This document shows, piece after piece, positions 33,882 through 51,232 of a stretch of 64,000 nt of DNA. Position numbers and translations under genes: made by a program. The DNA is from Muribaculaceae bacterium (GTDB lineage: Bacteria > Bacteroidota > Bacteroidia > Bacteroidales > Muribaculaceae), in NCBI GenBank assembly GCA_017462345.1, contig JAFTRI010000037.1, positions 62,001-126,000 on the forward strand, written 5' to 3'. How positions within the stretch are numbered: position 1 is the first letter of the stretch; every line of letters starts with the position of its first letter. Below the pieces are notes generated by a model, which saw only the letters and a list, made by a program, of their open reading frames with translations, was not told the DNA's origin and searched no databases.

Positions 33882-35231
33882 TTATTTCAGCTTCACGGTA
33901 AAGAAACCGGCAGCACCAGCCGTGCTTACCAACTGTGCCACAGACGGGTTCAACACCGATTCGGGAGAAACCTTATAGTCCGATGCGTTCAGCATGTCGA
34001 GTGCAGTCTTGAATGACGGGATGCGGCTGAAGAACTTAACAGCATTGGAATTTCCCTTTACAGTCCCATCCTCTGAGGGGAATACGAAACGCACCGTGTC
34101 GTCACCTACAGTCACGACTTCTCCATAGAAGTTGTAAGTTCCGCGGTTAGTTTCTACCGACAGGGCATAAGTCTCATTCTGCGCATCATAATACAGCGAC
34201 ATGCTGCGGAATGTCTGGTTTACCTCTCTTTTAAGATCAGACTTGAGCGAAGCGATCAACGCTGTCATACTTTCACCGCAATCCGCCTCATCGGTCGATA
34301 CTGCCCACTTGTAGGATTTTCTCACATACAGTTCAGAAAGCGACCCGGCATTGATTTCGGCTCTGCTTGAGGCATCGGTGCTTACAAGCTGCTGCTTGTC
34401 ATCGAGTTTGAAAGTCTGCACGGTAAACACACCGTCATTGGCACGTGGAATTTCTATCGTATTCATGAAGCGTATGCCGTCAGGACTTATCAAGGCATTA
34501 TATGATACCGTCTGAGTGACAGGGTCACCGGCTTCGGGATAAAAAGTGAAGATACCGTCAGACTGTGTCACGACGAAACGCTCACCAGTCTCGTCCGTCA
34601 TATAAAGCGGAAAAATCTTCTCATGGAACATCTTGGTCGGAGCGGCCGCATATCCGGCAAGCAACGCTTCATCGTCGGTATCGGCTGCCAGGCGGTGCAT
34701 CAGTATGGTATAACCGCGTTTCTTGCCTTTCAGACGCACGGTGTTGCCCGATTCATCGGTAGCACCCATCATCATGAACTCATAGTCACCGGCATGTCCT
34801 GTCCCGGTCTCATCGATATCCGAGCCATCAATGTCGCTTGTAGGCCCGCCGACAATATTTTCAGGGGTAGAGAAGGTATGGAACACGGTGTTGTAGGAAT
34901 TGAACGTGAGCACCGGACCGTTATCGGAAATCATCTCCCACAGCGACACTTCACTCTTGTATCCGCCTATCCACTTGTTGTTGCCGGCAATCCTTACGCT
35001 TCCGTCGGCATTGAATGTCATTACAAAAGCATAACCCTGCTCACCGGTATTGGCAAAATACTCCATAAGCCACTTGCCGCCATTGGAAGTCAGTATATCG
35101 GAATACTGGACCTTGTACTGTTCGAGACGTTCGGCCGCCGAAGCGTCAAAAATGTCGTCCTCCTCGTTGTCGCACGAAGAAAATGCAACCGACGTCAACA
35201 GCATAACCGATAAATATATAAACTTTTTCAT
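33882..35231 (-). CDS. DUF4302 lipoprotein
   Basis: A 449-aa lipoprotein (lipobox AFSS-Cys20, then DNEEDD, an acidic surface-export type signal). It belongs to the DUF4302 family, seen from AERLEQYKVQYSDILTSNGGKWLMEY (start of the domain) and its many beta strands. The family is found with SusC/SusD pairs and the metallohydrolase lipoprotein of the next gene upstream, as here. Its role is unknown; substrate binding at the cell surface is the likely guess. It is 42 nt from the metallohydrolase gene in one operon. Confidence 0.85.
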   Translation of the reverse strand: MKKFIYLSVMLLTSVAFSSCDNEEDDIFDASAAERLEQYKVQYSDILTSNGGKWLMEYFANTGEQGYAFVMTFNADGSVRIAGNNKWIGGYKSEVSLWEMISDNGPVLTFNSYNTVFHTFSTPENIVGGPTSDIDGSDIDETGTGHAGDYEFMMMGATDESGNTVRLKGKKRGYTILMHRLAADTDDEALLAGYAAAPTKMFHEKIFPLYMTDETGERFVVTQSDGIFTFYPEAGDPVTQTVSYNALISPDGIRFMNTIEIPRANDGVFTVQTFKLDDKQQLVSTDASSRAEINAGSLSELYVRKSYKWAVSTDEADCGESMTALIASLKSDLKREVNQTFRSMSLYYDAQNETYALSVETNRGTYNFYGEVVTVGDDTVRFVFPSEDGTVKGNSNAVKFFSRIPSFKTALDMLNASDYKVSPESVLNPSVAQLVSTAGAAGFFTVKLK

Positions 35232-35273
35232 ATCTGCGAATTGTAAAGTTGTTTTACTGGTTTAAATCATCCG

Positions 35274-36464
35274 TTACTGGATATTCTCGATCTCCTGACG
35301 GAGTTCATCCATATTGAAGTCATACTGGCGGCGCTGCACGATCTCACGCAGCTTGTCAAAGTCAAGTCCCCACTCATCCTTGAGCCAGTTGCGGGCAATG
35401 TTAACCTTCTGGTTGATGATGGCACGCCCGTCGACACCGTCGGATATCTCATACGGGTACATCGTGTACTTCTCTCCCATCCTGGCAAGATAAGCCTCGA
35501 CCTGCTCCACTGTCGAATAGACATTACCGCTGCTGTCGACAAGTGTCATGAGGTTACGCGACTTGTCATCGACAAACTGCAGGGTGTAGGTACGCACGTT
35601 AGCCTCACGGTCCTCATCGTTGGCATAATAGTAATAGCACTGCGCCTTAGACTGGTCAGTGGCATCTTCACCCGAATACCAGTTCTGGTCGGCACACCAC
35701 AACAACAGGTTATACTGGTCGTCGGTGCGGGTAATGAAGTTGGCGATAGTCTCGGCAAAATCCTCACGGGTCTGCGAACTTGCGTATGAGGTGATGAATC
35801 CGAGCGAATTTACAATACCGTTGTTACGGTCCTGCCAGTTGTTATCGTCATACCGCCCGTTGCTCAGTGTGTTGAACTCGGCGGGATAGCTCTTGGTCTG
35901 GTGCATGATGTGGGCAAACTCATGGTGCATCGTGCGGAAATAATACTCATTGAGCTGGTTGAAATCAGTAACATTAAGCTCATTCACCTTGAAAAGCGAC
36001 ACCTTGATACCCCCCTCGGCAAGACCGAGAATCTCGGTACCGGTCGACGGGTTATAGGCGGGAGAGCCTATAAGGTGGATGATACGGGGACCATACTGTT
36101 TCAGGAACTCCTTGCCGCTATCCTCGTCACCCTCCTTGTAGCACAACTCCTCGTAGGCGTCAAACCACAGATACTTGGTGAGCAGTGCAAGATCCTGCGC
36201 ATTCTGCAGCGTTGCGGGGACAAGGTTGTAGTTCATGTCGGTCTCCACATCCTCCATCTTGTAGCAGAACTCCAGATTGTAAACATCACGGAAATTCCGG
36301 ATCAGCCATGTATCGAACTTGTAGGTCGCCGACGACGGGTCAACCGTATCGGGAACATCGGGGAAAATAGTATCGGTAAAATCATCGTCGTCACCACATG
36401 ACACAAACCCCGGAGCAAGTGCCAGTGCCGTAAACGATGCAATAATATATCTGTTGAATTTCAT
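35274..36464 (-). CDS. SusCD-associated zinc metallohydrolase lipoprotein
   Basis: A 396-aa lipoprotein (lipobox GFVS-Cys23, then GDDDDF, a strong surface-export type signal). The zinc motif HEFAH (residues 181-185) with Glu182 as catalytic base marks it as a gluzincin-like peptidase of the substrate import-associated zinc metallohydrolase family (HExxH lipoproteins encoded beside SusC/SusD). The third zinc ligand is probably a Glu or Asp after residue 210 (SQTREDFAETIANF). It suggests that the system imports peptides or a protein-derived compound rather than plain glycans. It is 15 nt from susD1. Confidence 0.88.
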   Translation of the reverse strand: MKFNRYIIASFTALALAPGFVSCGDDDDFTDTIFPDVPDTVDPSSATYKFDTWLIRNFRDVYNLEFCYKMEDVETDMNYNLVPATLQNAQDLALLTKYLWFDAYEELCYKEGDEDSGKEFLKQYGPRIIHLIGSPAYNPSTGTEILGLAEGGIKVSLFKVNELNVTDFNQLNEYYFRTMHHEFAHIMHQTKSYPAEFNTLSNGRYDDNNWQDRNNGIVNSLGFITSYASSQTREDFAETIANFITRTDDQYNLLLWCADQNWYSGEDATDQSKAQCYYYYANDEDREANVRTYTLQFVDDKSRNLMTLVDSSGNVYSTVEQVEAYLARMGEKYTMYPYEISDGVDGRAIINQKVNIARNWLKDEWGLDFDKLREIVQRRQYDFNMDELRQEIENIQ

Positions 36465-36479
36465 AATCTTTATAGAGTA

Positions 36480-38231
36480 TTATTTATTAGCAATTTCATA
36501 CACTTCAATAGCGGTATCGGCATCACCCGGTGCGGGACGCGGGTTAGCTACAAGACCTGCCGACATAACCTCGGTGGGAATCTGTATCGCCTTGCGGGCA
36601 TCCATCATGGTCAGAGTCTCCGTACGCCCCATACCGATCTTACGGGTAAACTCGATTCCGAAACGCTTGATGTCGAAGAAACGCATACCGGTGTGTATCG
36701 TCTCGATGCGGCGGCAGTGCTGGATGCACTGGAGAATCGGCTCGATGTCATCGGTAACGGTATATCTTTCACTGGGACACACCTCGTCAAGATGTATCTC
36801 CTTGGCAATGCCATAACCATCGGTACCTTCATCGGCATCGCTATCGTAGGTTTTCATCCTGTTATAGAAATCGCGTATCAACGGCTCGGAAAGGTCGACA
36901 TAACGGTCAACCGGGCCACCGTTCTCGACATTACGGCGAGCCTTTTCCCACACATCCAGGTCGGCTATCGCACCGGCCTTGTCACCGAGGAAGAGTTTTG
37001 CCTCGGCACGGACAAGCAGTGTCTCCTCACCGTTGAACTCCGAACGTGTCATGTGGGTGTAACCGATACCGGCTACCTTGTCGGTGTACTCGAACTGCTC
37101 ACAGCATGTTCCGGCAAAATATGTACCGTACTCAGCCTTACCGCTTGATCCGCAAGCACCGTTAAAGCTCGGATTCATTGAAAATACCTCCCCGGTACCG
37201 TTGCTTGCACGCCACTCGTACCCTTCCCATGAAGGAGCAGGGCCCTGAATCGTGGCACGCTTGGCATCACGCGTAACAGAATACCGGTTGCCGAGATGAC
37301 GGCGCCACCATGTCGAATAAGTGGGAATCAGCAGGAAATTACGAGCCTTGTCTATACCGTTATAGTACAGTCCGAAGTCACTGATATAATAGAAATTACC
37401 GAGATTCTGCCATATATCGCTCATATACTGCGACACGTCAGCACCCTCGCCACCGAAAGCCGCATTGGCATGTTTTAGAGCCTTTTCATAATCACGTTTG
37501 AACAGATAGAAACGTGCAGCAAACGCATTGGCTGCCGCCGTGTTGAAATGATACTTTGGCACTTCATAGAGACCGTTGTTAATCAACGGCAGACCGGCAG
37601 TGAGATCCGCCTCGATCCTGTCATACACCTCAGCGAGCGTCCCGCGGTCATAGTGGGGTTTCACGGTAGTCTCGGGAACAGTGATATAGGGAATACCCTG
37701 AATAGACTTGCTCAATTCCGGGCCGCGATAGGCATCGCAGAAAATATTGGCAAGGATAAAATGGCAATAGGCACGGATGAGCAGAGCCTCGCCCTTGATT
37801 GCAGGAAGTTTCTCATACCCGTCAAGAGCCGTGCCCTGAGCCTCAAACTCCGGAATCTTCTCCAGAACGGCATTGGCCCCTGCAATGGCATTATAGTATG
37901 CTTCCCACACATGGGACGGGGAATCCTGATCCGTAGCCGACTTCACATCCTCAAAGGCAAACAATTCGTCATCGCCCTTGTTGTAGGCGGTAAGATTGTA
38001 ACGGTTACCATCCTTATCGGGAGAGTTATTATCTTCATAGTTATCACTCGATAACCCGCACACCAACGCATAGTTTGCGCTCGGATAAGAAGTTACCAAC
38101 AACATGCTTAACTGCGACGGGGACTCGAGGTTGACACGTGTGTCGGGTATCTTGTCAAGGAAATCATCACATGACGACAACGACACGAGCGCAACCGCCG
38201 ACAACCCATATAATATATTCTTAAGTTTCAT
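36480..38231 (-). CDS. SusD/RagB family outer-membrane lipoprotein (SusD1)
   Basis: A 583-aa surface lipoprotein (lipobox LSS-Cys21, then DDFLDK). It forms the lid over its SusC barrel and binds the substrate. The SusD fold is seen in the N-terminal LDKIPDTRVNLESPSQL, the TPR-like helices (ALLIRAYCHFILANIFC) and the C-terminal IQIPTEVMSAG. A tract near residues 515-545 (RRIETIHTGMRFFDIKRFGIEF) matches the end of the family. The gene follows susC1 by 28 nt. The ligand cannot be read from sequence. Confidence 0.95.
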   Translation of the reverse strand: MKLKNILYGLSAVALVSLSSCDDFLDKIPDTRVNLESPSQLSMLLVTSYPSANYALVCGLSSDNYEDNNSPDKDGNRYNLTAYNKGDDELFAFEDVKSATDQDSPSHVWEAYYNAIAGANAVLEKIPEFEAQGTALDGYEKLPAIKGEALLIRAYCHFILANIFCDAYRGPELSKSIQGIPYITVPETTVKPHYDRGTLAEVYDRIEADLTAGLPLINNGLYEVPKYHFNTAAANAFAARFYLFKRDYEKALKHANAAFGGEGADVSQYMSDIWQNLGNFYYISDFGLYYNGIDKARNFLLIPTYSTWWRRHLGNRYSVTRDAKRATIQGPAPSWEGYEWRASNGTGEVFSMNPSFNGACGSSGKAEYGTYFAGTCCEQFEYTDKVAGIGYTHMTRSEFNGEETLLVRAEAKLFLGDKAGAIADLDVWEKARRNVENGGPVDRYVDLSEPLIRDFYNRMKTYDSDADEGTDGYGIAKEIHLDEVCPSERYTVTDDIEPILQCIQHCRRIETIHTGMRFFDIKRFGIEFTRKIGMGRTETLTMMDARKAIQIPTEVMSAGLVANPRPAPGDADTAIEVYEIANK

Positions 38232-38259: not shown

Positions 38260-41200
38260 TTAGATTCCAAAACGCAAAGTGAATGTGAACTGCTTGGGTA
38301 TAGGCGAAGCCACACCACCCGAGTTGAAGAATTCCGGATCCTGACCGTTCAGCTTATCATCGCTATAGATAAGGAACAGGTTGGTTGCCTGGAACTTTAC
38401 CGATGCCGATGACAGTCTCAACGCATCAAGTACCTTGCGGGGAATGTCGTAGGTCAACGAAATTTCCTTCATGCGGATAAACCCACCGTCGGCAATACGC
38501 GCAGTCGAGTAGTTATAGGCATTGTAGGCGTATGACAGATACGGGTCGTTGTAATACTGGCGGCGTGAGGCAATCGCCGGAATATTGGTGCGTGCCTCGT
38601 CACCGGGTACAACCCAACGGTTCTTGAACTCCTTGGGCATAGCCGAAAGGTCGCTGTAAGAAGCCGAGAATACCGGGTCAAGACGTATCTTGTTACCGAA
38701 CGCATAGGTCATAAACAGGTTCAGGTGGAAACCTTTCCAATGGAACTGGTTACCGAAACCGCCGGTCACTGTCGGGTCGGCAGGACCTTCATACTTCAAG
38801 AATTCGAGGTTTTCAAAATCCTGGAAGTTGATGTCGGATGTCGTAACCTCACCCTTTTCGTTTACGATCATGGGGATACCCTCCTCATTAAGCCCTACGA
38901 AGGGGATAGAGAAGATGGCACGCACAGGATAGCCCTGGATTGCGTAACCCGAACCCTGCACGAGGTCAATCACACGCGAGCGCGACTTGAGGTCGGTAAT
39001 CTCGTTCTTGGCGTAGGCAAATGTAAAGTCGGTGGTCCAGGAGAAATCCTTGGTCTGTATATTCTTGGTAGAGAGAGTGAACTCGACACCGTGTGACGCC
39101 ATCTCGGCAGCATTCGCCCACTTGCGGATAGTACCGCCGACACCCTCGGTGAACACATAACCGATAAGGTCATAGTTGTTACGCACATACCAGTCGAACA
39201 CAAGGTTGATGCGGTTATTGAGGAAACCGAGGTCGACACCGAGGTCAAACTCATGTTTTTTCTCGTAGGTCAACTCGGAGTTACCGAGCTCGGTCAGCAT
39301 GAGAGCCTCCTCGTAGGCATCGGTATCCTGACGCCACGGGCGTGAGGGGTTGTAGATGGCCATAGCATTTGACACGCTTGACGGTCCGCTTTCACCTGTC
39401 AGTGAATATGACGCACGCAGCTTGGCAGTTGCCAGCACCGGATTCTGGAACCACGGTTCCTGATCGGCGTTCCATGCACCGGACACGTTCCAAGTGGGCA
39501 ACCAGCGTGACTGGCTCGACTTTCCGAGCTTGTTGGAGCCTTCGTAGCGCATTGTACCTGTCAAGGTGTAACGGTATTTCCATGAATAGGACGCAGTACC
39601 AAAGAATGCAGCCGAACGGCGATAGGATGTCTGGTCGCTGAAATAGTTGGCAATCTCCTCATTCATCTGCTTGAAAAGTTTCCAGTCGGTAAACGGCAGG
39701 TTACCGTTCTCATAGCATATACCCCAACCCTGATAGTATTCCTGACGGCGTTCGATAGAACTTGCCTCGGCGCCCACGTAGACGTTGGTAATATGGTCAT
39801 CGTTGAAAATCTTGTCATATTTTCCCGACACGCGCACGTCATACTGTGACAGTGTGTACAGGTTGTGGTAGATGATACCACCCTTAGGCAACACGGTCTC
39901 GGGGAGCGAGTTCGGCTCATCGGGGTCAGTGTACAAATAGGGGTTCGACGAACGTATAGTCGCGTTTTCAGGGATAACACCCGCACGGTAGGCGTTGGCC
40001 TGATTGGAGTTATCCTTCACGTAATGATCCTGCTTGGATGTCTGGTGACGGAATGCACCGAGAGCATTGAACTCAAGACCCGGCAGAGGCTTGTAGGTGA
40101 GTTCGCCCTGGAACTTGAGGTCGGTCACATTAATATCCATGTAGTTATTGTCGAGTTCATCAAAGATGTTGAAATCGGCATAGTTACGGGTCAATGTAGC
40201 ATTGGGGTCGGTGGTACGCGAAGTGTTCAGCGCGTAGGAATAGGGGTTGATGTCAAAGCTGCGTGACACGGCGCCCGACACCACATCCACGTCCTGGCTC
40301 AAAGTTCCCGGAGCTTTCTGCTTGCGGAACGAGTCACTTGTGAGCAACTTGATTTTCAACTGCTTTGACAGGTTGTAGGTAGCATTGGCGTTGAAAGTGT
40401 AACGCTGCACCTCACTCGACTTATACCAGCCCTGATCGTCCATGAACGAGAATGAGGTATAGAACGAGCCTTTATCAGTACCGCCGGAGATGCTCACGGC
40501 ATGGTTCTGCATTATATTGTCGTTGAACAGCAGGTCAAACCAGTCGGTGTTGCGGAACTCGGCCTGACGCAGGTAGGCGTTCCTTGCAGCAGCGGTATTG
40601 GGCAATCCGTATCCCGTAGCGGGATCGTATGAGTTGATCATCTTGTACATAGTACCGTAGATACCCGACGAGGACGAGTTGGCAAGCGATGCGAACGACA
40701 GCCATCCCTTAGCTTCCATCTCCTTATATATACCCATCTGTTCCTGTGAGTTACAGATATTGAAGTCGTCATAGCTCGGCTTGAGACGATAGGTGAACTC
40801 ACCGGTGTAGTTGATGCTCGTCTTGCCGGCGCGTCCCTGCTTGGTGGTAACGACAATCACACCCGCCATCGCGCGCGCACCATATATTGATGTGGCCGAA
40901 CCGTCTTTCAGGATCTGGAACGACTCGATGTCATCGGCATTAAGGCCGGCTATAGAAGAAGCGATAAGCGTCTCGGCGTCTCCCGAAGAAAGAGCGTCGG
41001 CAGAGATTTCCACCGCATCCTCAAGAATCACACCGTCGACAACCCACAGCGGCTTTGACGTACCGTAGATTGATGTAGCACCACGCACACGGATCTTAGG
41101 CGCAGTACCGAACGTACCCGAGACGTTCTGCACCGACACACCTGCGGCACGTCCCTCAAGGGAGCGTGAGATGTCGGCAACACCGCTGATGCGCGCATTG

Positions 41201-41583
41201 TCGGCATCGATCTTGGAAGAAGCACCGGTAAAGAGTCGCTTGTCGACATTGGCCATACCGGTCACAACAACCTCACCGAGCTGCTGGGTATTGGATTTCA
41301 GATAAATTTTCTTGGGAAGTTCACTTGCTTTCACCTCTTCAGTATTCATACCGATATACTTGATTTCAAGTACCGACTTGGCCGACGGCACACTAAGCAC
41401 GAAGTTACCGTCAATATCAGTGGAAGTGGCTATCGACGCCTTCCCTTTCACCGAGACGGTCGCGCCGATCAGAGGCTCTCCATCTTCTTCAGCAATAACC
41501 GTACCGCTCACCTGGTGCTGTGACCACGCATTAAGCGACACTGACATTATTGCCCAAAACAATAGTAAAAGTTTTTTCATCAT
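38260..41583 (-). CDS. SusC/RagA family TonB-linked outer-membrane protein (SusC1)
   Basis: A 1107-aa outer-membrane transporter. Signal peptide to about residue 21, then a carboxypeptidase-D-like domain (VSGTVIAEEDGEPLIGATVSVKGK), a TonB-box-type segment (LGEVVVTGMANVDKR), the plug (YGARAMAGVIVVTTKQG) and a 22-strand barrel ending FTFTLRFGI. No STN signalling domain is present, so no direct link to an anti-sigma factor is indicated. It begins a five-gene operon on the minus strand. Its fixed promoter is at 41681-41715, and a second, possibly switchable one lies farther upstream. Confidence 0.96.
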   Translation of the reverse strand: MMKKLLLLFWAIMSVSLNAWSQHQVSGTVIAEEDGEPLIGATVSVKGKASIATSTDIDGNFVLSVPSAKSVLEIKYIGMNTEEVKASELPKKIYLKSNTQQLGEVVVTGMANVDKRLFTGASSKIDADNARISGVADISRSLEGRAAGVSVQNVSGTFGTAPKIRVRGATSIYGTSKPLWVVDGVILEDAVEISADALSSGDAETLIASSIAGLNADDIESFQILKDGSATSIYGARAMAGVIVVTTKQGRAGKTSINYTGEFTYRLKPSYDDFNICNSQEQMGIYKEMEAKGWLSFASLANSSSSGIYGTMYKMINSYDPATGYGLPNTAAARNAYLRQAEFRNTDWFDLLFNDNIMQNHAVSISGGTDKGSFYTSFSFMDDQGWYKSSEVQRYTFNANATYNLSKQLKIKLLTSDSFRKQKAPGTLSQDVDVVSGAVSRSFDINPYSYALNTSRTTDPNATLTRNYADFNIFDELDNNYMDINVTDLKFQGELTYKPLPGLEFNALGAFRHQTSKQDHYVKDNSNQANAYRAGVIPENATIRSSNPYLYTDPDEPNSLPETVLPKGGIIYHNLYTLSQYDVRVSGKYDKIFNDDHITNVYVGAEASSIERRQEYYQGWGICYENGNLPFTDWKLFKQMNEEIANYFSDQTSYRRSAAFFGTASYSWKYRYTLTGTMRYEGSNKLGKSSQSRWLPTWNVSGAWNADQEPWFQNPVLATAKLRASYSLTGESGPSSVSNAMAIYNPSRPWRQDTDAYEEALMLTELGNSELTYEKKHEFDLGVDLGFLNNRINLVFDWYVRNNYDLIGYVFTEGVGGTIRKWANAAEMASHGVEFTLSTKNIQTKDFSWTTDFTFAYAKNEITDLKSRSRVIDLVQGSGYAIQGYPVRAIFSIPFVGLNEEGIPMIVNEKGEVTTSDINFQDFENLEFLKYEGPADPTVTGGFGNQFHWKGFHLNLFMTYAFGNKIRLDPVFSASYSDLSAMPKEFKNRWVVPGDEARTNIPAIASRRQYYNDPYLSYAYNAYNYSTARIADGGFIRMKEISLTYDIPRKVLDALRLSSASVKFQATNLFLIYSDDKLNGQDPEFFNSGGVASPIPKQFTFTLRFGI

Positions 41584-41666
41584 TAAAAATTAATACAAAA
41601 ACAGAGTTATTATTAATCGTTTTTATCAAAAATTCCGGCTCTATAGCACGACTGCCATTGCACAAT

Positions 41667-41680
41667 CGCCCATTAGGGCG
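41667..41680. promoter_or_regulatory. dyad at the susC1 transcription start
   Basis: CGCCC-atta-GGGCG directly follows the susC1 -10 box on the minus strand, so it falls at the predicted start of the message. It could be a 5' end hairpin or an operator. Confidence 0.4.
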
Positions 41681-41715
41681 CAAAGATACTACAAAATATC
41701 AAAAAACTAAACAAA
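41681..41715 (-). promoter_or_regulatory. fixed promoter of susC1
   Basis: On the minus strand: TTTG (41715-41712), 23 bp, TATCTTTG (41688-41681). The spacer is a little long against the usual 19-21. It would give a leader of about 90 nt to the susC1 ATG at 41583. This segment is closely similar to the promoter inside the invertible segment. Confidence 0.6.
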
Positions 41716-41821
41716 TGGCAATAGTTTTTCTCCCTATTTAACATTTTGACAACCAAACACGCCATAAGTCATCACAAATGGACATATCCGGGAATTAACT
41801 TAAACGCTTCCGGTTTTCCTC

Positions 41822-41838
41822 TGCCAATCTCTTACTAA
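41822..41838 (+). repeat. left inverted repeat of the inverton
   Basis: TGCCAATCTCTTACTAA, perfect partner of 42009-42025. Confidence 0.9.
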
Positions 41839-41857
41839 TAGATAGGCTTATGAAACG

Positions 41858-41891
41858 CAAAGATAAGATAAAATATTAAAAGATAAACAAA
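41858..41891 (-). promoter_or_regulatory. switchable promoter inside the inverton
   Basis: On the minus strand: TTTG (41891-41888), 22 bp, TATCTTTG (41865-41858). In the given orientation it fires toward susC1. On inversion about the repeats it would map to 41956-41989 on the plus strand and start transcription near 41996, about 100 nt before the susC2 ATG. Together with 41681-41715 it is one of only two TAnnTTTG boxes in the whole susC1-susC2 gap, both on the minus strand. Confidence 0.65.
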
Positions 41892-42008
41892 TGACAATAT
41901 TTTTCTTCGCTTTTTAACACTCCGGTTGTTTAGCAAGTTTAGCGAATGTTGGGCAAAAGGGAAAAAATGGCAGTTGTTCTATAGGGATTTAGCCATCGGT
42001 ATGCTCTC

Positions 42009-42025
42009 TTAGTAAGAGATTGGCA
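42009..42025 (-). repeat. right inverted repeat of the inverton
   Basis: Exact inverted copy of 41822-41838. It lies 71 nt before the susC2 start codon. Confidence 0.9.
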
Positions 42026-42095
42026 CATTTTGCTTGCAATTTATAGTGATTACACATCTGTTTTTTTAATAATTCTATGTCTAATTATTTTTAGT

Positions 42096-45000
42096 ATGAA
42101 AAAGCTGTTTCTATTATTTTTGACAATCGCTACTTTCGCACTTTGTGCGTCAGCGCAGACGCGGACGGTGCAGGGTACGGTTGTGTATGCCGGAGACAAC
42201 GAGCCTCTTGCAGGGGCAACGATTCTCCCGGTAGGAGGAGGCAACGGTGTTTCCACCGACCTTGACGGCAAATTCGCATTGAAAGTGCCCGCCTCATGTA
42301 AACAACTCACGGTGTCATACGTAGGTATGATAACCCAGCAGGTAGATGTCGCCGCCGGTGACATGCTCATCAAGCTGACCAACTCGGAGAACAATCTTGA
42401 CGAGGTGATGGTCGTGGCCTACGGTACAGCCAAGAAATCGGCATATACCGGTTCGGCATCGGTCGTGAAAGCCGACGCGCTTGAGGACCGCCTCGTATCC
42501 AACGTAACAAACGCACTTGCCGGTGCAGTTGCCGGCGTGCAGACCCAAAGCTCTAACGGGCAGCCCGGCACATCATCTACAGTGCGCATCCGCGGTATCG
42601 GCTCACTCTATGCAAGCAACACGCCACTCTACGTACTTGACGGCATGCCATACGACGGAGACATCGCATCAATCAACCCTGCCGACATCGAGTCGATGAC
42701 AGTACTGAAAGACGCAGCGGCAGCAGCACTCTACGGTGCACGCGGTGCAAACGGTGTCATCCTCATCACCACCAAACGCGGCAAGCAGGGTGACGCCAAA
42801 GTCACTTTCGACGCCCGCTGGGGTGTCAACTCCCGTCAGGTGACCAACTATGACGTAATCGAAAGCCCCGAGCAATACATGGAACTCATGTACCAGGCCC
42901 ATTATAACGATGCAGTGTACAATCAGGGCATGTCGGCAGCAAACGCCCACGTCTATGCCAACAACCAGCTCGTGCCGTCGCTCGGCTACCAGGTGTTCAG
43001 CGTGCCTGAAGGGCAGTTCCTCATCGGGACCAACGGACGTTTCAACCCCAACTGCTCCCGCGGCTACAGCGACGGGGAATATTTCTATACTCCCGACGAC
43101 TGGTCCGACGGAACATTCCGTGACGGTTTCCGTCAGGAATACAACCTCAGCGTATCGGGCGGGACTGACCGTCTCAACTATTTCGTCTCAGCAGCCTACC
43201 TTGAAGATGAAGGTATCATAGACAACTCGGCCTACGAGCGTCTATCGACCCGTGCAAGCATCGACTACCAGGCCAAGAAATGGTTGAAGATAGGCACCAA
43301 CCTCTCCTACACCTACTCCAATTCAAAATACCCGGACGAACAGACCGCAAGCGCGTCATCAGGCAACGCTTTCGGTATCGCCAACAAAATCGCGCCGATC
43401 TATCCGATGTATGTGCGCAATGCCGACGGCTCAATCAAGATGGATGACCGTTTCAACCGTCCGGTATATGACTACGGTGACGGCAGCAGCACCAACAACA
43501 CACGTTCATTCATGTCGATGTCCAATCCTGCCAGTGACCTCATCTACAGCACCGAGGAATATCTCACCGACCTGTTCAACGGGAAATGGTATGTCCAAGT
43601 CACCCCGATAGAAGGGCTTACCGTGACCGGAAACGTGGGTCTCACCATCGACAATACCCGCACCCACTCGGCAAGCAGCAGCTACTACGGACAGAGCGCG
43701 GCCTACGGCGGCTCGGCATATCAGGTTGCACAACGCAACAAAGGCATTAACCTCCAGGCTCTTGCCAACTACAAGAAGACATTTGCCAACGTACACAACA
43801 CCGACTTCCTCGCGGGCTACGAAAGCTACGAATGGAATGAGGAATGGGTACAGGGCTACGGCACAGGTATCTACCAGGAAAACAACTGGGCGGTTAACAA
43901 TACCCTGCTGTCGGAACGCAAGGGTTACGGTGCATACGGCGAATATGCCACACGCGGCATCATCGCCCGTGCCAACTATGACTACGACACCAAGTACTAC
44001 GGAAGCGTATCCTACCGCCGCGACGCATCTTCCCGTTTCCATCCCGACCATCGCTGGGGCGACTTCTTCTCGGTCAGCGCAGCTTGGGACATCGCCAAAG
44101 AATCATTCCTCGACGGAGCATCATGGGTAGACATGCTGAAGGTAAAGGCCTCATTCGGGCAACAGGGTAACGACAACCTCGGCAACAACTACACCTACGT
44201 CGACCAGTGGACCATCACCGGTACCGACAGCTGGAGTGACGGCACGCTCTACTACAAGGGCAATCCAGAACTGACATGGGAAAAGTCCAATGCATTCAAC
44301 GTGGGTGTCGACTTCAGCCTGTGGCAGGGCAAACTGTCAGGTACAGTGGAATACTTCAACCGCGAGACATCGGACATGCTCTACAACAAGCCCACTCCGG
44401 CATCAATCGGCTACACATCAGTCCCGGTAAACGTGGGCTCGATGCGTAACAGCGGATTCGAGATCGAACTCCTGTACCGCCCCATCGCGACACGCAATTT
44501 CACATGGGAAATCAACGCCAATGCTACATTTGTCAAGAACAAGATACTTGAACTCGCTCCGGAACTCAACGGCGAGCTCATCTCAGGGTCACGCATCCTG
44601 CGCGAAGGCGAATCGATGTACCAGTACTACCTCGTGAAATATGCGGGTGTAAATCCCGAGAACGGAAAGGCCATGTACTGGGCCAAGGATGACGCAGGCA
44701 ACGAATACCAGACCGATGACTGGGCCGTCGCCAACGCCACCAACAAGCAGGGGACAGGTGACATACTGCCCGTGGTCTACGGAGGTATAGGGACGACACT
44801 GAAAGCCTACGGATTTGACTTCTCGCTCCAATGCTCCTACCAGCTCGGCGGCGAAATATGGGATTACGGTTACCAGGATTTCATGCACAGCGGGACATCA
44901 GACTCCTACGGACTCAACTGGCACAAGGATATACTTAATGCCTGGACTCCGACCAACACCAATACCGATGTACCCCGTCTCGACGCATCCGACCCCTATT

Positions 45001-45263
45001 CATTCTATATGTATTCAAGCGACCGTGCCCTGGAATCATCGGACTACTTTGCCATCAACAACATCACCCTCGGCTACACCCTCCCGGCTTCATTCACCAA
45101 GAAGTTCGGCATAGAGACACTACGCGTCTACGGTGCAGCCGACAATGTCGCACTGTTCAGCGCACGCAAGGGCCTTGACCCGCGTCAGGGCTATCTGAAC
45201 GCATCGACCTCGACCTACACCGCAATGCGCTGTATCTCAGGCGGTATCAAGCTCGTATTCTAA
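42096..45263 (+). CDS. SusC/RagA family TonB-linked outer-membrane protein (SusC2)
   Basis: A 1055-aa outer-membrane transporter. Signal peptide to about Ala20 (MKKLFLLFLTIATFALCASA), then the carboxypeptidase-D-like domain (VQGTVVYAGDNEPLAGATI), a TonB-box-type DEVMVVAYGTAKKSAYTGSA, the plug (LYGARGANGVILITTKRGKQG) and a barrel ending GGIKLVF. The ATG at 42096 is chosen; 22 upstream in-frame residues to 42030 would spoil the signal peptide. No plus-strand promoter is visible upstream in the present orientation of the inverton. SusD2 follows after 25 nt. No glycan-degrading enzyme is encoded nearby. Confidence 0.95.
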   Translation: MKKLFLLFLTIATFALCASAQTRTVQGTVVYAGDNEPLAGATILPVGGGNGVSTDLDGKFALKVPASCKQLTVSYVGMITQQVDVAAGDMLIKLTNSENNLDEVMVVAYGTAKKSAYTGSASVVKADALEDRLVSNVTNALAGAVAGVQTQSSNGQPGTSSTVRIRGIGSLYASNTPLYVLDGMPYDGDIASINPADIESMTVLKDAAAAALYGARGANGVILITTKRGKQGDAKVTFDARWGVNSRQVTNYDVIESPEQYMELMYQAHYNDAVYNQGMSAANAHVYANNQLVPSLGYQVFSVPEGQFLIGTNGRFNPNCSRGYSDGEYFYTPDDWSDGTFRDGFRQEYNLSVSGGTDRLNYFVSAAYLEDEGIIDNSAYERLSTRASIDYQAKKWLKIGTNLSYTYSNSKYPDEQTASASSGNAFGIANKIAPIYPMYVRNADGSIKMDDRFNRPVYDYGDGSSTNNTRSFMSMSNPASDLIYSTEEYLTDLFNGKWYVQVTPIEGLTVTGNVGLTIDNTRTHSASSSYYGQSAAYGGSAYQVAQRNKGINLQALANYKKTFANVHNTDFLAGYESYEWNEEWVQGYGTGIYQENNWAVNNTLLSERKGYGAYGEYATRGIIARANYDYDTKYYGSVSYRRDASSRFHPDHRWGDFFSVSAAWDIAKESFLDGASWVDMLKVKASFGQQGNDNLGNNYTYVDQWTITGTDSWSDGTLYYKGNPELTWEKSNAFNVGVDFSLWQGKLSGTVEYFNRETSDMLYNKPTPASIGYTSVPVNVGSMRNSGFEIELLYRPIATRNFTWEINANATFVKNKILELAPELNGELISGSRILREGESMYQYYLVKYAGVNPENGKAMYWAKDDAGNEYQTDDWAVANATNKQGTGDILPVVYGGIGTTLKAYGFDFSLQCSYQLGGEIWDYGYQDFMHSGTSDSYGLNWHKDILNAWTPTNTNTDVPRLDASDPYSFYMYSSDRALESSDYFAINNITLGYTLPASFTKKFGIETLRVYGAADNVALFSARKGLDPRQGYLNASTSTYTAMRCISGGIKLVF

Positions 45264-45288: not shown

Positions 45289-46887
45289 ATGAAAGCATTA
45301 AATAAAATACTTGCCGTTGCAACTGCCGGGCTTCTGCTCACAGGCTGTAACGACCTCGACACCGCCCCGATGGGATCGACCATCACCAATGACCAGAAGA
45401 ACGCGGTGTACACCGAAGATCCGTCGATGCTTGAGGCCGGAGTGAACAGTATCGCCACAATGTTCACCACATTCGCCAACACTCTCGGCGACGGCTATCA
45501 TAACGATTTCGGCTATCCGTCGGTAATGCTGTGCCTCGATTCACGAGGCTACGACTTCGTTAGTGAAGCCATAGGCTACAACTGGTACTCCAGCAGCCTG
45601 AAATATTCCGACAACACCAAGAACGGGTCTATCACCTACATGATATGGCGCACGATGTACAATCAGGTCTACACCGCCAACACGGTGCTCAAATCAATTT
45701 CCGCCGACACGCAGGACCCGACCGAACAGTACTACCGTGCCCAGGCTCTCGCAGTGCGTGCATTCGACTACTTCGTACTCGCACAGCTCTACCAGCACAA
45801 CTATGTGGGACACGAAAACTCACTCTGCGTACCGCTGGTACTCGACACCAACATGGACAAGATCGAGGCCGACGGAGGTTCTCCGCGCAAGACCGTGGAG
45901 GAGGTATATACCCAAATACTCAGCGACATAAACAATGCCGTCAGCCTGCTTGAGAACTCCTCGATAAAGCCATCGGCAGGACGTGCGGGCAAGAAATTCG
46001 TGTCGCTCGCGACAGCCTACGGGTTGCGTGCACGCATCAACCTGACAATGCAGAAATGGGCTGAAGCCGCCGCTGATGCCCAGGCAGCACTCAACAACAC
46101 GACGGCAGTCCCATACAGTGCCGAGGAGGTCAGCAAGCCCACATTTGCATCGGCCGACGACAATGCCTGGATGTGGGGCGTAATCATCGAGGAGGGCGAC
46201 GACGTAGTGACATCAGGCATTATCAACTGGCCATCACACATGGGCTCGCTTAACTACGGCTATGCTTCAGTGGGGGCATGGCGCATGGCAAGCAAGGCTC
46301 TGTACAACTCAATCCCCGAGACCGACCCGCGCAAAGGATGGTTCCTCAACGAGGAGTTCAAGTCAGCCAACCTAACCGAAGCGCAGCAGGCCTATATCGG
46401 AGCTAAGGAAAAGGCATACATACAGGTTAAATTCGCACCCTACAAGGACGAAATATACACCTCGACCAATGCCAACGACGTTCCGCTGATGCGTGTCGAG
46501 GAGATGTACCTCATCCTTGCCGAGGCTCAGGCAATGGCAGGGAATCCGGGACTTGGAGCACAGACTCTCCAGACATTTGTACAGACCTACCGCGACAAGA
46601 CCTACACCTGCACGGCATCGTCACCTACCGACGTGCAGATGGCAGTCTACGACCAGCGACGCCTTGAATTCTGGGGCGAGGGTCTCGCCTACTTCGACAT
46701 AATGCGACTCGGCATAGGCGTCGACCGCCGCGGAGCAGGTTTCGCAAGCAACCTTGTATTTGACATCGAAGGCAACGACCCGATACTCATCTACCCGATA
46801 CCTCAATCGGAAGAGGAAGCCAACTCCCTGCTTGGCGAGAACAACCCCGTAACCTCGGTTCCGTCACCGGTTGCCGATGTAGAATAA
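45289..46887 (+). CDS. SusD/RagB family outer-membrane lipoprotein (SusD2)
   Basis: A 532-aa surface lipoprotein (lipobox LLTG-Cys19, then NDLDTAPMG). Partner lid of SusC2. SusD marks include YYRAQALAVRAFDYFVLAQLYQ (TPR-like helices), VPLVLDTN, VEEVYTQILSDINNAVSLL and, at the end, RRLEFWGEGLAYFDIMRLG with NDPILIYPIPQSE. The fold is complete and of normal length. It starts 25 nt after susC2 and ends 32 nt before the third gene of the operon. Confidence 0.95.
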   Translation: MKALNKILAVATAGLLLTGCNDLDTAPMGSTITNDQKNAVYTEDPSMLEAGVNSIATMFTTFANTLGDGYHNDFGYPSVMLCLDSRGYDFVSEAIGYNWYSSSLKYSDNTKNGSITYMIWRTMYNQVYTANTVLKSISADTQDPTEQYYRAQALAVRAFDYFVLAQLYQHNYVGHENSLCVPLVLDTNMDKIEADGGSPRKTVEEVYTQILSDINNAVSLLENSSIKPSAGRAGKKFVSLATAYGLRARINLTMQKWAEAAADAQAALNNTTAVPYSAEEVSKPTFASADDNAWMWGVIIEEGDDVVTSGIINWPSHMGSLNYGYASVGAWRMASKALYNSIPETDPRKGWFLNEEFKSANLTEAQQAYIGAKEKAYIQVKFAPYKDEIYTSTNANDVPLMRVEEMYLILAEAQAMAGNPGLGAQTLQTFVQTYRDKTYTCTASSPTDVQMAVYDQRRLEFWGEGLAYFDIMRLGIGVDRRGAGFASNLVFDIEGNDPILIYPIPQSEEEANSLLGENNPVTSVPSPVADVE

Positions 46888-49759: not shown

Positions 49760-51232
49760 ATGAGTGACAACAATAAGACATCATCGCCCCGCGATGCACA
49801 ATGGCGAGAGGAGCTTCGCCAAAAACACAGTGCCAAGGAACGCACTGCAATACCTCGTGTAAAGATGCCCGAGCTTGACCCAGAATACCGTGTAACGACT
49901 TGCAACGAGGAGGTCAACCAAGGGTTGGACAAGGAACAGGCCGTACTGGAAGCGACCCGCTGCATGGACTGTCCCGACCCGCAATGTGTAACTGGCTGTC
50001 CCGTCAACATCAACATTACCGGATTCATCAAGAATATCGAACGCGGAGATTTTCATGCGGCAGCCGTGGTACTGAAAGAAACAAGCGCATTGCCGGCTGT
50101 GTGCGGACGCGTATGCCCGCAGGAAAAGCAGTGCGAATCACGCTGTATCTACCACAAGATGAAGAAAGAGCCTGTAGCTATAGGCTATCTTGAACGCTTT
50201 GCAGCCGACACCGAGCGTCTCAGCGGCAACACGTCACTGCCACCGATGGATGCCCCAAACGGCATAAAAATAGCGGTAGTGGGTTCAGGTCCTGCCGGAC
50301 TGTCATTTGCCGGGGACATGGTCAAACGCGGATTTGATGTAACCGTATTTGAAGCCCTGCATGAAATAGGCGGGGTGCTGAAATACGGCATACCCGAATT
50401 CCGTCTGCCAAACGCCGTGGTAGATGTCGAGATCGACGGATTGCGCAGCATGGGCGTGAAGTTCGAGAAAGACTGTATCGTCGGCAAGACGCTGTCATAC
50501 GACAACCTGCATGAAATGGGATTCAAAGGCATATTCGTGGCATCGGGAGCCGGTCTTCCACGTTTCATGAATATTCCGGGAGAAAATCTCATCGGTGTAA
50601 TGTCAAGCAACGAATACCTCACCCGTGTCAATCTCATGGGTGCCGGACGCCCCGACTGGGACACTCCGGTATTGAGAGGAAAACGCGTAGCGGTAATAGG
50701 AGGCGGAAACACAGCCATGGATTCCGTGCGCACAGCCCGGCGAATGGGTGCTGAGGTCGCAATGGTGGTATACCGCCGCAGCGAAGCCGAAATGCCCGCC
50801 CGCCTGGAAGAGGTGAAACATGCCAAGGAGGAGGGCGTGCAATTCATGACACTACACAATCCCGTAGAATACCGTGGAGATGAAAAAGGACGTGTTAACA
50901 TGATGCTGCTACAGCGCATGGAGCTCGGTGAACCCGATGCCTCCGGCCGCCGTTCACCCGTGCCGGTCGAAGGGGCAATCGAGGAAATTCCGGTCGACTT
51001 GGTTATTGTAAGTGTCGGAGTATCCCCCAACCCACTGATTCCCAACTCAATTCCACAGCTTGAAGTGTCACGGCGCGGGACAATAGTTGTAGATGAAACG
51101 TCAATGCAGTCATCGCTCAATGACCTGTATGCCGGTGGAGACATCGTGCGCGGAGGTGCAACAGTAATCCTCGCCATGGGAGACGGACGGCGTGCCGCAG
51201 CATCTATGGCCGACGCCCTCAAAGACGCCTGA
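49760..51232 (+). CDS. NfnB-like / NADPH-dependent glutamate synthase small-subunit-type flavoprotein
   Basis: A 490-aa cytoplasmic enzyme often named homotetrameric glutamate synthase subunit GltA. The N-terminal domain has two [4Fe-4S] sets (CMDCPDPQCVTGCPV near residues 73-87 and CGRVCPQEKQCESRC near 115-129). FAD site: IAVVGSGPAGLSFAGDM (about 172-188). NAD(P) site: VAVIGGGNTAMDSVRTARRMG. C-terminal AGGDIVRGGATVILAMGDGR. Next to the preceding gene (32-nt gap) the pair reads as NfnAB rather than a true glutamate synthase. Confidence 0.9.
   Translation: MSDNNKTSSPRDAQWREELRQKHSAKERTAIPRVKMPELDPEYRVTTCNEEVNQGLDKEQAVLEATRCMDCPDPQCVTGCPVNINITGFIKNIERGDFHAAAVVLKETSALPAVCGRVCPQEKQCESRCIYHKMKKEPVAIGYLERFAADTERLSGNTSLPPMDAPNGIKIAVVGSGPAGLSFAGDMVKRGFDVTVFEALHEIGGVLKYGIPEFRLPNAVVDVEIDGLRSMGVKFEKDCIVGKTLSYDNLHEMGFKGIFVASGAGLPRFMNIPGENLIGVMSSNEYLTRVNLMGAGRPDWDTPVLRGKRVAVIGGGNTAMDSVRTARRMGAEVAMVVYRRSEAEMPARLEEVKHAKEEGVQFMTLHNPVEYRGDEKGRVNMMLLQRMELGEPDASGRRSPVPVEGAIEEIPVDLVIVSVGVSPNPLIPNSIPQLEVSRRGTIVVDETSMQSSLNDLYAGGDIVRGGATVILAMGDGRRAAASMADALKDA

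What the first reader, a model, noticed from the sequence alone, without database searches (positions are those of the whole stretch)
41822..42025. Invertible promoter that may toggle transcription between two divergent SusC/SusD operons
Seen: a perfect 17-bp inverted repeat (TGCCAATCTCTTACTAA at 41822-41838 and its inverse at 42009-42025) encloses 170 bp in the gap between susC1 (minus) and susC2 (plus). Inside is one Bacteroidota-type promoter (TTTG 41891-41888, TATCTTTG 41865-41858, minus strand), near the left end and pointing outward toward susC1. No TAnnTTTG box on the plus strand serves susC2. Known: Bacteroidales flip such promoters upstream of SusC and capsule genes. Inferred: susC2 is OFF here. 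Flipping would put the promoter at about 41956-41989, some 100 nt from susC2, and remove it from susC1, so one inversion would move expression from one uptake system to the other.
Basis: partly seen in the sequence, partly recalled or inferred. Interest (0 to 1): 0.93.

Follow-up and report, generated by a model that had tools for sequence, protein, structure and literature searches.

The report
Flippable promoter between two SusCD operons
Between two back-to-back nutrient-uptake operons of a gut bacterium lies a 190-base promoter segment framed by mirrored recombination sites; its relatives occur in both orientations in other species, and here it likely works as an on/off switch for one operon rather than a clean swap between the two.

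Summary
In detail: a perfect 17-bp inverted repeat encloses one TAnnTTTG promoter that faces susC1, and susC2 has none of its own. So one inversion would switch susC2 on or off, but would only add or remove an extra promoter for susC1.

The element belongs to a Bacteroidales-wide family of promoter invertons with the site CTCTT-RNT-AAGAG; I collected 138 distinct candidates. A Tsr-type tyrosine recombinase gene lies within 6 kb of 32 of 123 promoter-bearing ones. The class inverts in nature: Bacteroides nordii and a MAG share 96-98% identical flanks around an oppositely oriented, 95% identical element.

Family rules hint at an ordered synapse: lengths in ~11-bp steps, the central site triplet identical in both arms (85 of 85 non-redundant elements), the -7 box mostly 27-29 bp from one arm, and an internal TTGCTAAAC-like motif ~73 bp from the other arm in a quarter or so.

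Caveats: nothing shows this copy flipped, no recombinase of that clade was found in the 84%-complete genome, and one base of one site is off-consensus.

The parts
41822..41842 (+). left inverted-repeat arm with recombination site CTCTTACTAATAG (41829-41841; the T of TAATAG is off the family consensus TAAGAG)
42005..42025 (-). right inverted-repeat arm with recombination site CTCTTACTAAGAG (read on the minus strand); same central triplet ACT as the left arm
41829..42018 (.). invertible segment, core to core, 190 bp
41858..41891 (-). internal promoter, -33 TTTG (41891-41888) and -7 TATCTTTG (41865-41858), now facing susC1; predicted to lie at 41956-41989 on the plus strand after inversion
   Evidence: position after inversion is arithmetic
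41928..41945 (-). two adjoining copies of the internal family motif (TCGCTAAAC 41945-41937, TTGCTAAAC 41936-41928), 74 and 83 bp from the promoter-distal arm; predicted accessory-factor site
   Evidence: function inferred
41681..41715 (-). fixed promoter of susC1, -33 TTTG (41715-41712) and -7 TATCTTTG (41688-41681), outside the element
38260..41583 (-). susC1 (TonB-dependent receptor, SusC type)
33882..38231 (-). rest of the susC1 operon: SusD (36480-38231), Peptidase_Mx1 protein (35274-36464), DUF4302 protein (33882-35231)
   Evidence: operon inferred from spacing
42096..45263 (+). susC2 (TonB-dependent receptor, SusC type), no promoter box of its own in this orientation
45289..46887 (+). 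susD2

Best explanation
The 190-bp segment between the divergent susC1 and susC2 operons carries one promoter and is framed by a matched pair of inverted recombination sites, and it likely acts as a reversible on/off switch for susC2, now in the predicted OFF position, that would be flipped by a Tsr-type tyrosine recombinase. Shown: the site pair, the promoter and its direction, the separate fixed promoter before susC1, and membership of a widespread family of elements, some of which are found in both orientations in nature. Inferred: that this copy still flips; that flipping would put the -7 box at 41982-41989 with a leader of about 100 nt to susC2; that susC1 would lose only an extra upstream promoter. 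Also inferred: strand exchange happens within the central triplet, which therefore has to match between the arms, and a protein bound at the internal TTGCTAAAC motif helps to bring the two sites together in helical phase.
For: Repeat and promoters. Site matches only at the two arms in the window. Same site pair a second time in this genome and twice in G009. Paired pattern in 40 of 397 genomes of the family, control pattern in 5 of 397. 124 of 138 collected elements have a TAnnTTTG 22-34 bp from an arm, 110 of the 123 one-sided ones at 27-29 bp. Central triplet equal in both arms in 85 of 85 non-redundant elements, 12 expected. Opposite orientation inside collinear flanks: L148/L242, L125/L218. 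Tsr-clade gene within 6 kb of 32 of 123 elements, 25 of them within 100 bp. Inverted window resembles relatives' susC upstream regions better in 12 of 14, 2 ties. The susC2 relative in G007 (79% over 511 residues) has a fixed promoter about 92 nt before its start.
Against: No read or second strain shows this copy inverted. No Tsr-clade gene at E <= 1e-20 in the own genome, 84% complete. The left site has T where 84 of 85 elements have G. 46 of 49 pairs of elements with homologous flanks have the same orientation. 14 of the 138 elements have no TAnnTTTG in the expected place. Three of the 14 in-silico flipped alignments do not exceed shuffles.
Confidence: 0.72

Rival explanations
1. Strict toggle: one inversion moves expression from susC1 to susC2 and back.
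For: The element does lie between two divergent SusC genes. The layout is real in G009, where neither gene has another TAnnTTTG box. In an Alistipes-labelled MAG a SusC 54.5% identical to SusC1 sits directly behind an element of the family, so SusC1-type operons can be under such control.
Against: susC1 here has a complete fixed promoter outside the segment, and its orthologs in G001 and G004 use a fixed promoter.
Confidence: 0.1
2. Locked relic: a former switch that no longer flips in this lineage and leaves susC2 off.
For: No Tsr-clade gene found in the own genome; one off-consensus base in the left site; both elements of this genome have the promoter pointing away from the start-proximal gene on the right.
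Against: The genome is 84% complete, so the gene may be missing from the assembly; the outer 17 bp of both arms are still identical. In Phocaeicola vulgatus a promoter was seen to flip although its neighbouring recombinase is defective (PMC13114119, passages).
Confidence: 0.25
3. The inversion is carried out by the Mpi-like serine recombinase of this genome, not by a Tsr.
For: The genome has one serine recombinase matching the Mpi family model over its length, 238.7 bits, below the curated cut-off of 272.
Against: G009, 99% complete, has two elements of the family and no resolvase-family gene; only 3 of 12 genomes of the genus have one. Elements of the family adjoin Tsr genes.
Confidence: 0.08
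4. No inversion at all: the repeats are only a hairpin or binding site, and their pairing is accidental.
For: The site is itself a near-palindrome and could form a small hairpin in RNA (sequence).
Against: Natural inversion of the class, matched triplets, adjoining recombinases; no terminator-like site in the region.
Confidence: 0.03

Closest known systems
Bacteroidota promoter invertons catalogued with PhaseFinder / PhaseFinderDC (PMC11892184: abstract, sections 6-8 and passages read)
   Same: Inverted repeats around a TAnnTTTG promoter; SusC/SusD (TonB receptor, RagB/SusD) genes among the targets; tyrosine recombinases beside them, not under their control.
   Different: Whether the CTCTT-RNT-AAGAG site is one of their published motif groups could not be checked (motif tables are in supplements that I could not open). 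The matched triplet, helical spacing and internal site are not mentioned in the parts I read.
Tsr0667-controlled SusC/SusD inversions of Bacteroides fragilis (named in PMC4747536, passages; the 2009 paper itself is recalled, not read)
   Same: One tyrosine recombinase acts on many promoter segments before SusC/SusD genes.
   Different: The site consensus that I recall, AGTYYYN4GDACT, does not occur in this element; some of those loci are shufflons.
[quoted passage not shown] fragilis (PMC4747536, abstract and passages)
   Same: A tyrosine recombinase flips a local and a distant TAnnTTTG promoter that drive extracellular polysaccharide and outer-membrane protein genes.
   Different: Site sequence not compared; no such recombinase adjoins the window's element.
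Mpi-controlled capsule promoters of B. fragilis (named in PMC4747536, passages)
   Same: Many promoters flipped by one invertase.
   Different: Serine recombinase and capsule genes; G009 has elements of the present family but no resolvase-family gene.

Membership tests
Bacteroidota promoter inverton | Inverted repeats around a promoter in an intergenic region | tested here: met
Bacteroidota promoter inverton | Both orientations observed at this locus | not testable with these tools
   No reads and no second genome of the species; met for other members of the class
Bacteroidota promoter inverton | Promoter would reach a start-proximal gene in the other orientation | tested here: met
   susC2 ATG at 42096, predicted -7 at 41982-41989; relatives' layout
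Tsr (tyrosine recombinase)-controlled inverton | Recombinase of the clade next to the element or in the genome | tested here: not met
   None at E <= 1e-20 in the 84%-complete own genome; met for 32 of 123 relatives of the element within 6 kb
Tsr0667 regulon of B. fragilis | Site AGTYYYN4GDACT in the arms (consensus recalled) | tested here: not met
   Two matches in the window, at 50460 and 63378, none in the element
Mpi-controlled inverton | Mpi-type serine recombinase in genomes that carry the element | tested here: not met
   Absent from G009, which has two elements; an Mpi-like gene below the model cut-off is in the own genome
Two-operon promoter toggle | No other promoter for either operon | tested here: not met
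   susC1 has a fixed promoter at 41681-41715; the feature is met in G009

The most novel reading that the evidence does not exclude
The element belongs to an order-wide class of tyrosine-recombinase invertons built as a rigid, helically phased machine: site spacing is set in whole helical turns (about 177, 188, 200, 210, 220, 232 bp), each element's two sites share one central triplet, and an internal site at a fixed distance from the promoter-distal arm binds an unknown accessory factor, a recombinational enhancer of a kind not yet described in Bacteroidales, through which cells could control many surface-receptor switches together.
Probability: 0.4. Interest if true: 0.75.

Novelty: new member of a known kind. 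Interest (0 to 1): 0.55.

Why it matters
Gut Bacteroidales vary their outer-membrane nutrient receptors by flipping promoters. The comparison of the family gives testable rules (matched triplet, helical spacing, internal site) that could tell which recombinase flips which promoter and how flipping is controlled.

Tried and rejected
Strict toggle between susC1 and susC2: rejected as the main reading once the fixed susC1 promoter was found and seen in orthologs.

G009:C2 as the ortholog of the window's locus seen flipped: rejected. Its two SusC proteins are only 33% and 31% identical to SusC2, so it is a parallel case.

Mpi-like serine invertase as the agent: unlikely. Co-occurrence of Tsr-clade genes with elements across genomes carries little weight, because 287 of 397 genomes have a match at E <= 1e-20; adjacency is the argument. 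NCBIfam gave the Tsr proteins no specific name: only Xer and integron models far below their cut-offs.

Exact site words in the literature: no paper (six words). Phage collection: no match. A seeming helical quantisation of the internal motif's position mostly dissolved: it sits 71-74 bp from the distal arm in 21 of 27 exact core matches. That core word list was chosen after seeing the first matches, so its statistics are post hoc. My second notebook entry miscounted two tallies (30 of 31 elements with a promoter, control hits in 6 genomes); recounts give 29 of 31 and 5 of 397. My third entry gives the G009 spacer as 58 nt; one search measures 62.

Full report
WHAT IS THERE. The perfect 17-bp inverted repeat at 41822-41838/42009-42025 is real. 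It is the longest in the window at spacings of 60-400 bp; 40 first-order Markov versions of the window gave at most 15 bp and 2000 of the intergenic region at most 16 bp. The promoter inside is on the minus strand (TTTG 41891-41888, 22 nt, TATCTTTG 41865-41858). The only plus-strand TAnnTTTG in 41584-42130 is at 42115, inside susC2, whose ATG is at 42096. The left operon encodes SusC, SusD, a Peptidase_Mx1 protein, a DUF4302 protein and a protein without a Pfam match; the right one SusC, SusD and a protein without a Pfam match.

WHAT WAS MISSED. A second promoter (TTTG 41715-41712, 23 nt, TATCTTTG 41688-41681, minus strand) lies outside the repeat, about 90 nt before susC1, in an 81-85% direct repeat of the internal promoter region. 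Besides the own genome, 2 of the other 11 genomes of the genus have a susC1 ortholog (G001, G004; 85% identity). Both have a fixed TAnnTTTG promoter at a similar distance and no element. So flipping would not silence susC1. No terminator-like site was found in the region, so in the present orientation the internal promoter may add to susC1; that is inferred.

THE FAMILY. In the 12 genomes of the genus, perfect matches to the site AATCTCTTRSTAAKAGA occur only in the window's genome and in G009, at two site pairs each (one arm of the G009:C11 pair has a mismatch). With two mismatches, 10 of 12 genomes have matches, no more than the reversed control gives in most. The second pair of the own genome, on contig C39, lies between a sigma-54 gene and a gene for a WD40-repeat protein. 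A paired pattern finds the element in 40 of 397 genomes of the family, in 14 of 30 genera; the reversed control hits 5 of 397. Three of the 40 (G226, G303, G383) lack the full palindrome and look like chance. I collected 138 distinct candidates. 124 have a TAnnTTTG within 22-34 bp of an arm; of the 123 with it near one arm only, 110 have it at 27-29 bp; 14 have none in that range.

EVIDENCE THAT THE CLASS INVERTS. L148 (a MAG) and L242 (B. nordii) have collinear 1-kb flanks (97.7% and 96.0%; alignment scores 954 and 920 of 1000), but the 188-bp element matches only when reversed (95% reversed, 35% direct). L125 (G122) and L218 (a Muribaculum MAG) show the same at lower identity, as do L242 and L247. 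The other 46 of 49 pairs with homologous flanks on both sides have the same orientation; many of these are paralogs within Phocaeicola. None of this concerns the window's own copy.

RECOMBINASE. Among the 30 loci first fetched for the family, four carry a tyrosine recombinase of one clade beside the element, and so does G001. In the larger set, 32 of 123 elements have one within 6 kb; 25 of the 32 lie within 100 bp, all 25 with the gene's 3' end towards the element (two of the 32 rows are alternative site pairings at one place, L194). The loci differ in length, so this is a lower bound, and no background rate was computed. Seven proteins of the clade, two of them not beside a paired element, all keep R150, K176, R249, H272 and Y281; that these are catalytic residues is recalled knowledge. 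The window's genome shows no member of the clade at E <= 1e-20. Its PF00589 matches are two ~300-aa proteins that I read as XerC/XerD, two tandem integrases on a 4-kb contig, and a short remnant. It also has an Mpi-like serine invertase, below the model's cut-off.

WHICH ORIENTATION IS ON. I aligned the stretch before susC (up to 300 bp) in 14 of the 19 relatives' loci L002-L020. The window with the segment inverted scores higher than the native one in 12 and ties in 2. The inverted version exceeds the best of 100 shuffles in 11 of 14, the native one in 2 of 14. G007, whose SusC is 79% identical to SusC2 over 511 residues, has a fixed promoter about 92 nt before the gene and no repeat of 11 bp or more. 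Hence OFF is the present predicted state. In crude gene calls on 85 non-redundant elements, 32 point away from a lone start-proximal gene, 12 towards it, 19 lie between two divergent genes, and 22 could not be placed so. Of the 19 divergent cases, 7 have no other TAnnTTTG box on either side. A toggle is therefore a real layout in the family, G009 being the clearest SusC example, but not at this window.

RULES OF THE FAMILY. (a) The central triplet RNT takes all eight forms, yet both arms agree in 85 of 85 non-redundant elements; random pairing gave 12 on average and 21 at most. Matching overlap sequences are what strand exchange by tyrosine recombinases needs (recalled). (b) In 59 genome handles, at least three of them the same genome twice, I scanned spacings that give lengths of 132-302 bp. 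Elements came at 176-178, 185-190, 194-203, 205-212, 219-220 and 232 bp, plus two at 273 and 283. The scans demand one A/T at a fixed place near their limits and meet at 192 bp, so sensitivity dips slightly there; the scans without that demand show the same trough (5 of 85 clusters at 191-196 bp, against 44 at 185-190 and 25 at 197-203). On 87 lengths (one per genome and length, under 240 bp) the best period is 11.1 bp, and a smoothed null reached the observed strength in 0 of 5000 draws. Without the main peak the signal is weaker (resultant 0.49 at 11 bp, n = 47), and shared descent among elements weakens it further. (c) A motif around TTGCTAAAC lies on the promoter strand 71-74 bp from the promoter-distal arm in 21 of 27 exact matches among 85 elements; 2 matches lie on the opposite strand. 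So most elements lack an exact copy, although columns 79-82 stand above the shuffled threshold. The window has two adjoining copies, at 74 and 83 bp. Because its distance is constant from the distal arm and not from the promoter, I infer a role in recombination rather than in transcription.

LITERATURE. Promoter inversion before SusC/SusD genes is established. Seen: PMC11892184 (abstract, sections 6-8, passages), PMC4747536 (abstract and passages), PMC12632263, PMC8748976 and PMC13114119 (passages; the last shows by PCR a P. vulgatus capsule promoter that flips although its neighbouring recombinase is defective). Of the eight paper searches, (inversion with Muribaculaceae, six exact site words, inverton with helical) returned no paper. 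In one search none of the 10 listed papers holds 'helical phasing', and neither of the 2 listed holds 'recombinational enhancer'. Searches gave the papers above. The papers of Jiang 2019 and Nakayama-Imaohji 2009 and all supplements were not read, so I cannot say that the site itself is unpublished.

VERDICT. A new member of a known kind, correctly spotted, with the toggle reading weakened to a one-sided switch. The family rules are the most interesting part and remain inferred from sequence.

Noticed in passing
L056:9485-9672 (G000:C39:43484-43671): A second element of the family in the same genome, between a sigma-54 gene and a gene for a WD40-repeat protein; promoter pointing to the sigma-54 gene.
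   Followed up: partly
L058:9376-9564 (G009:C2:21875-22063): An element of the family between two divergent susC genes with no other TAnnTTTG box: the clearest true toggle layout seen.
   Followed up: partly
L197:2423-6959: In a MAG labelled Alistipes, a SusC 54.5% identical to SusC1 lies directly behind an element of the family, with a Tsr-clade recombinase 30 nt from the other arm.
   Followed up: partly
L094:13252-13487 (G000:C4): A different 18-bp inverted repeat around 200 bp with one TAnnTTTG, about 5.3 kb from the Mpi-like serine recombinase: possibly another inverton of this genome.
   Followed up: no
L133 and other Phocaeicola massiliensis loci (G421): Nine elements in this genome; several share a near-identical promoter half and differ in the other half.
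   Followed up: no
L254:838-2455 (G190:C103): An element whose promoter points at the start of the adjoining recombinase gene itself, 219 nt away, a possible self-controlling switch.
   Followed up: no
L267 (G435:C4:58996-59268): Three sites in a row (pairs of 200 and 273 bp share the left site), so more than two arrangements may be possible.
   Followed up: no
L057:9713-9923 (G009:C11): At this element about 20 bp outside the left site are repeated directly just inside the right site, so inversion would create a long perfect palindrome at the left site (read by eye).
   Followed up: no
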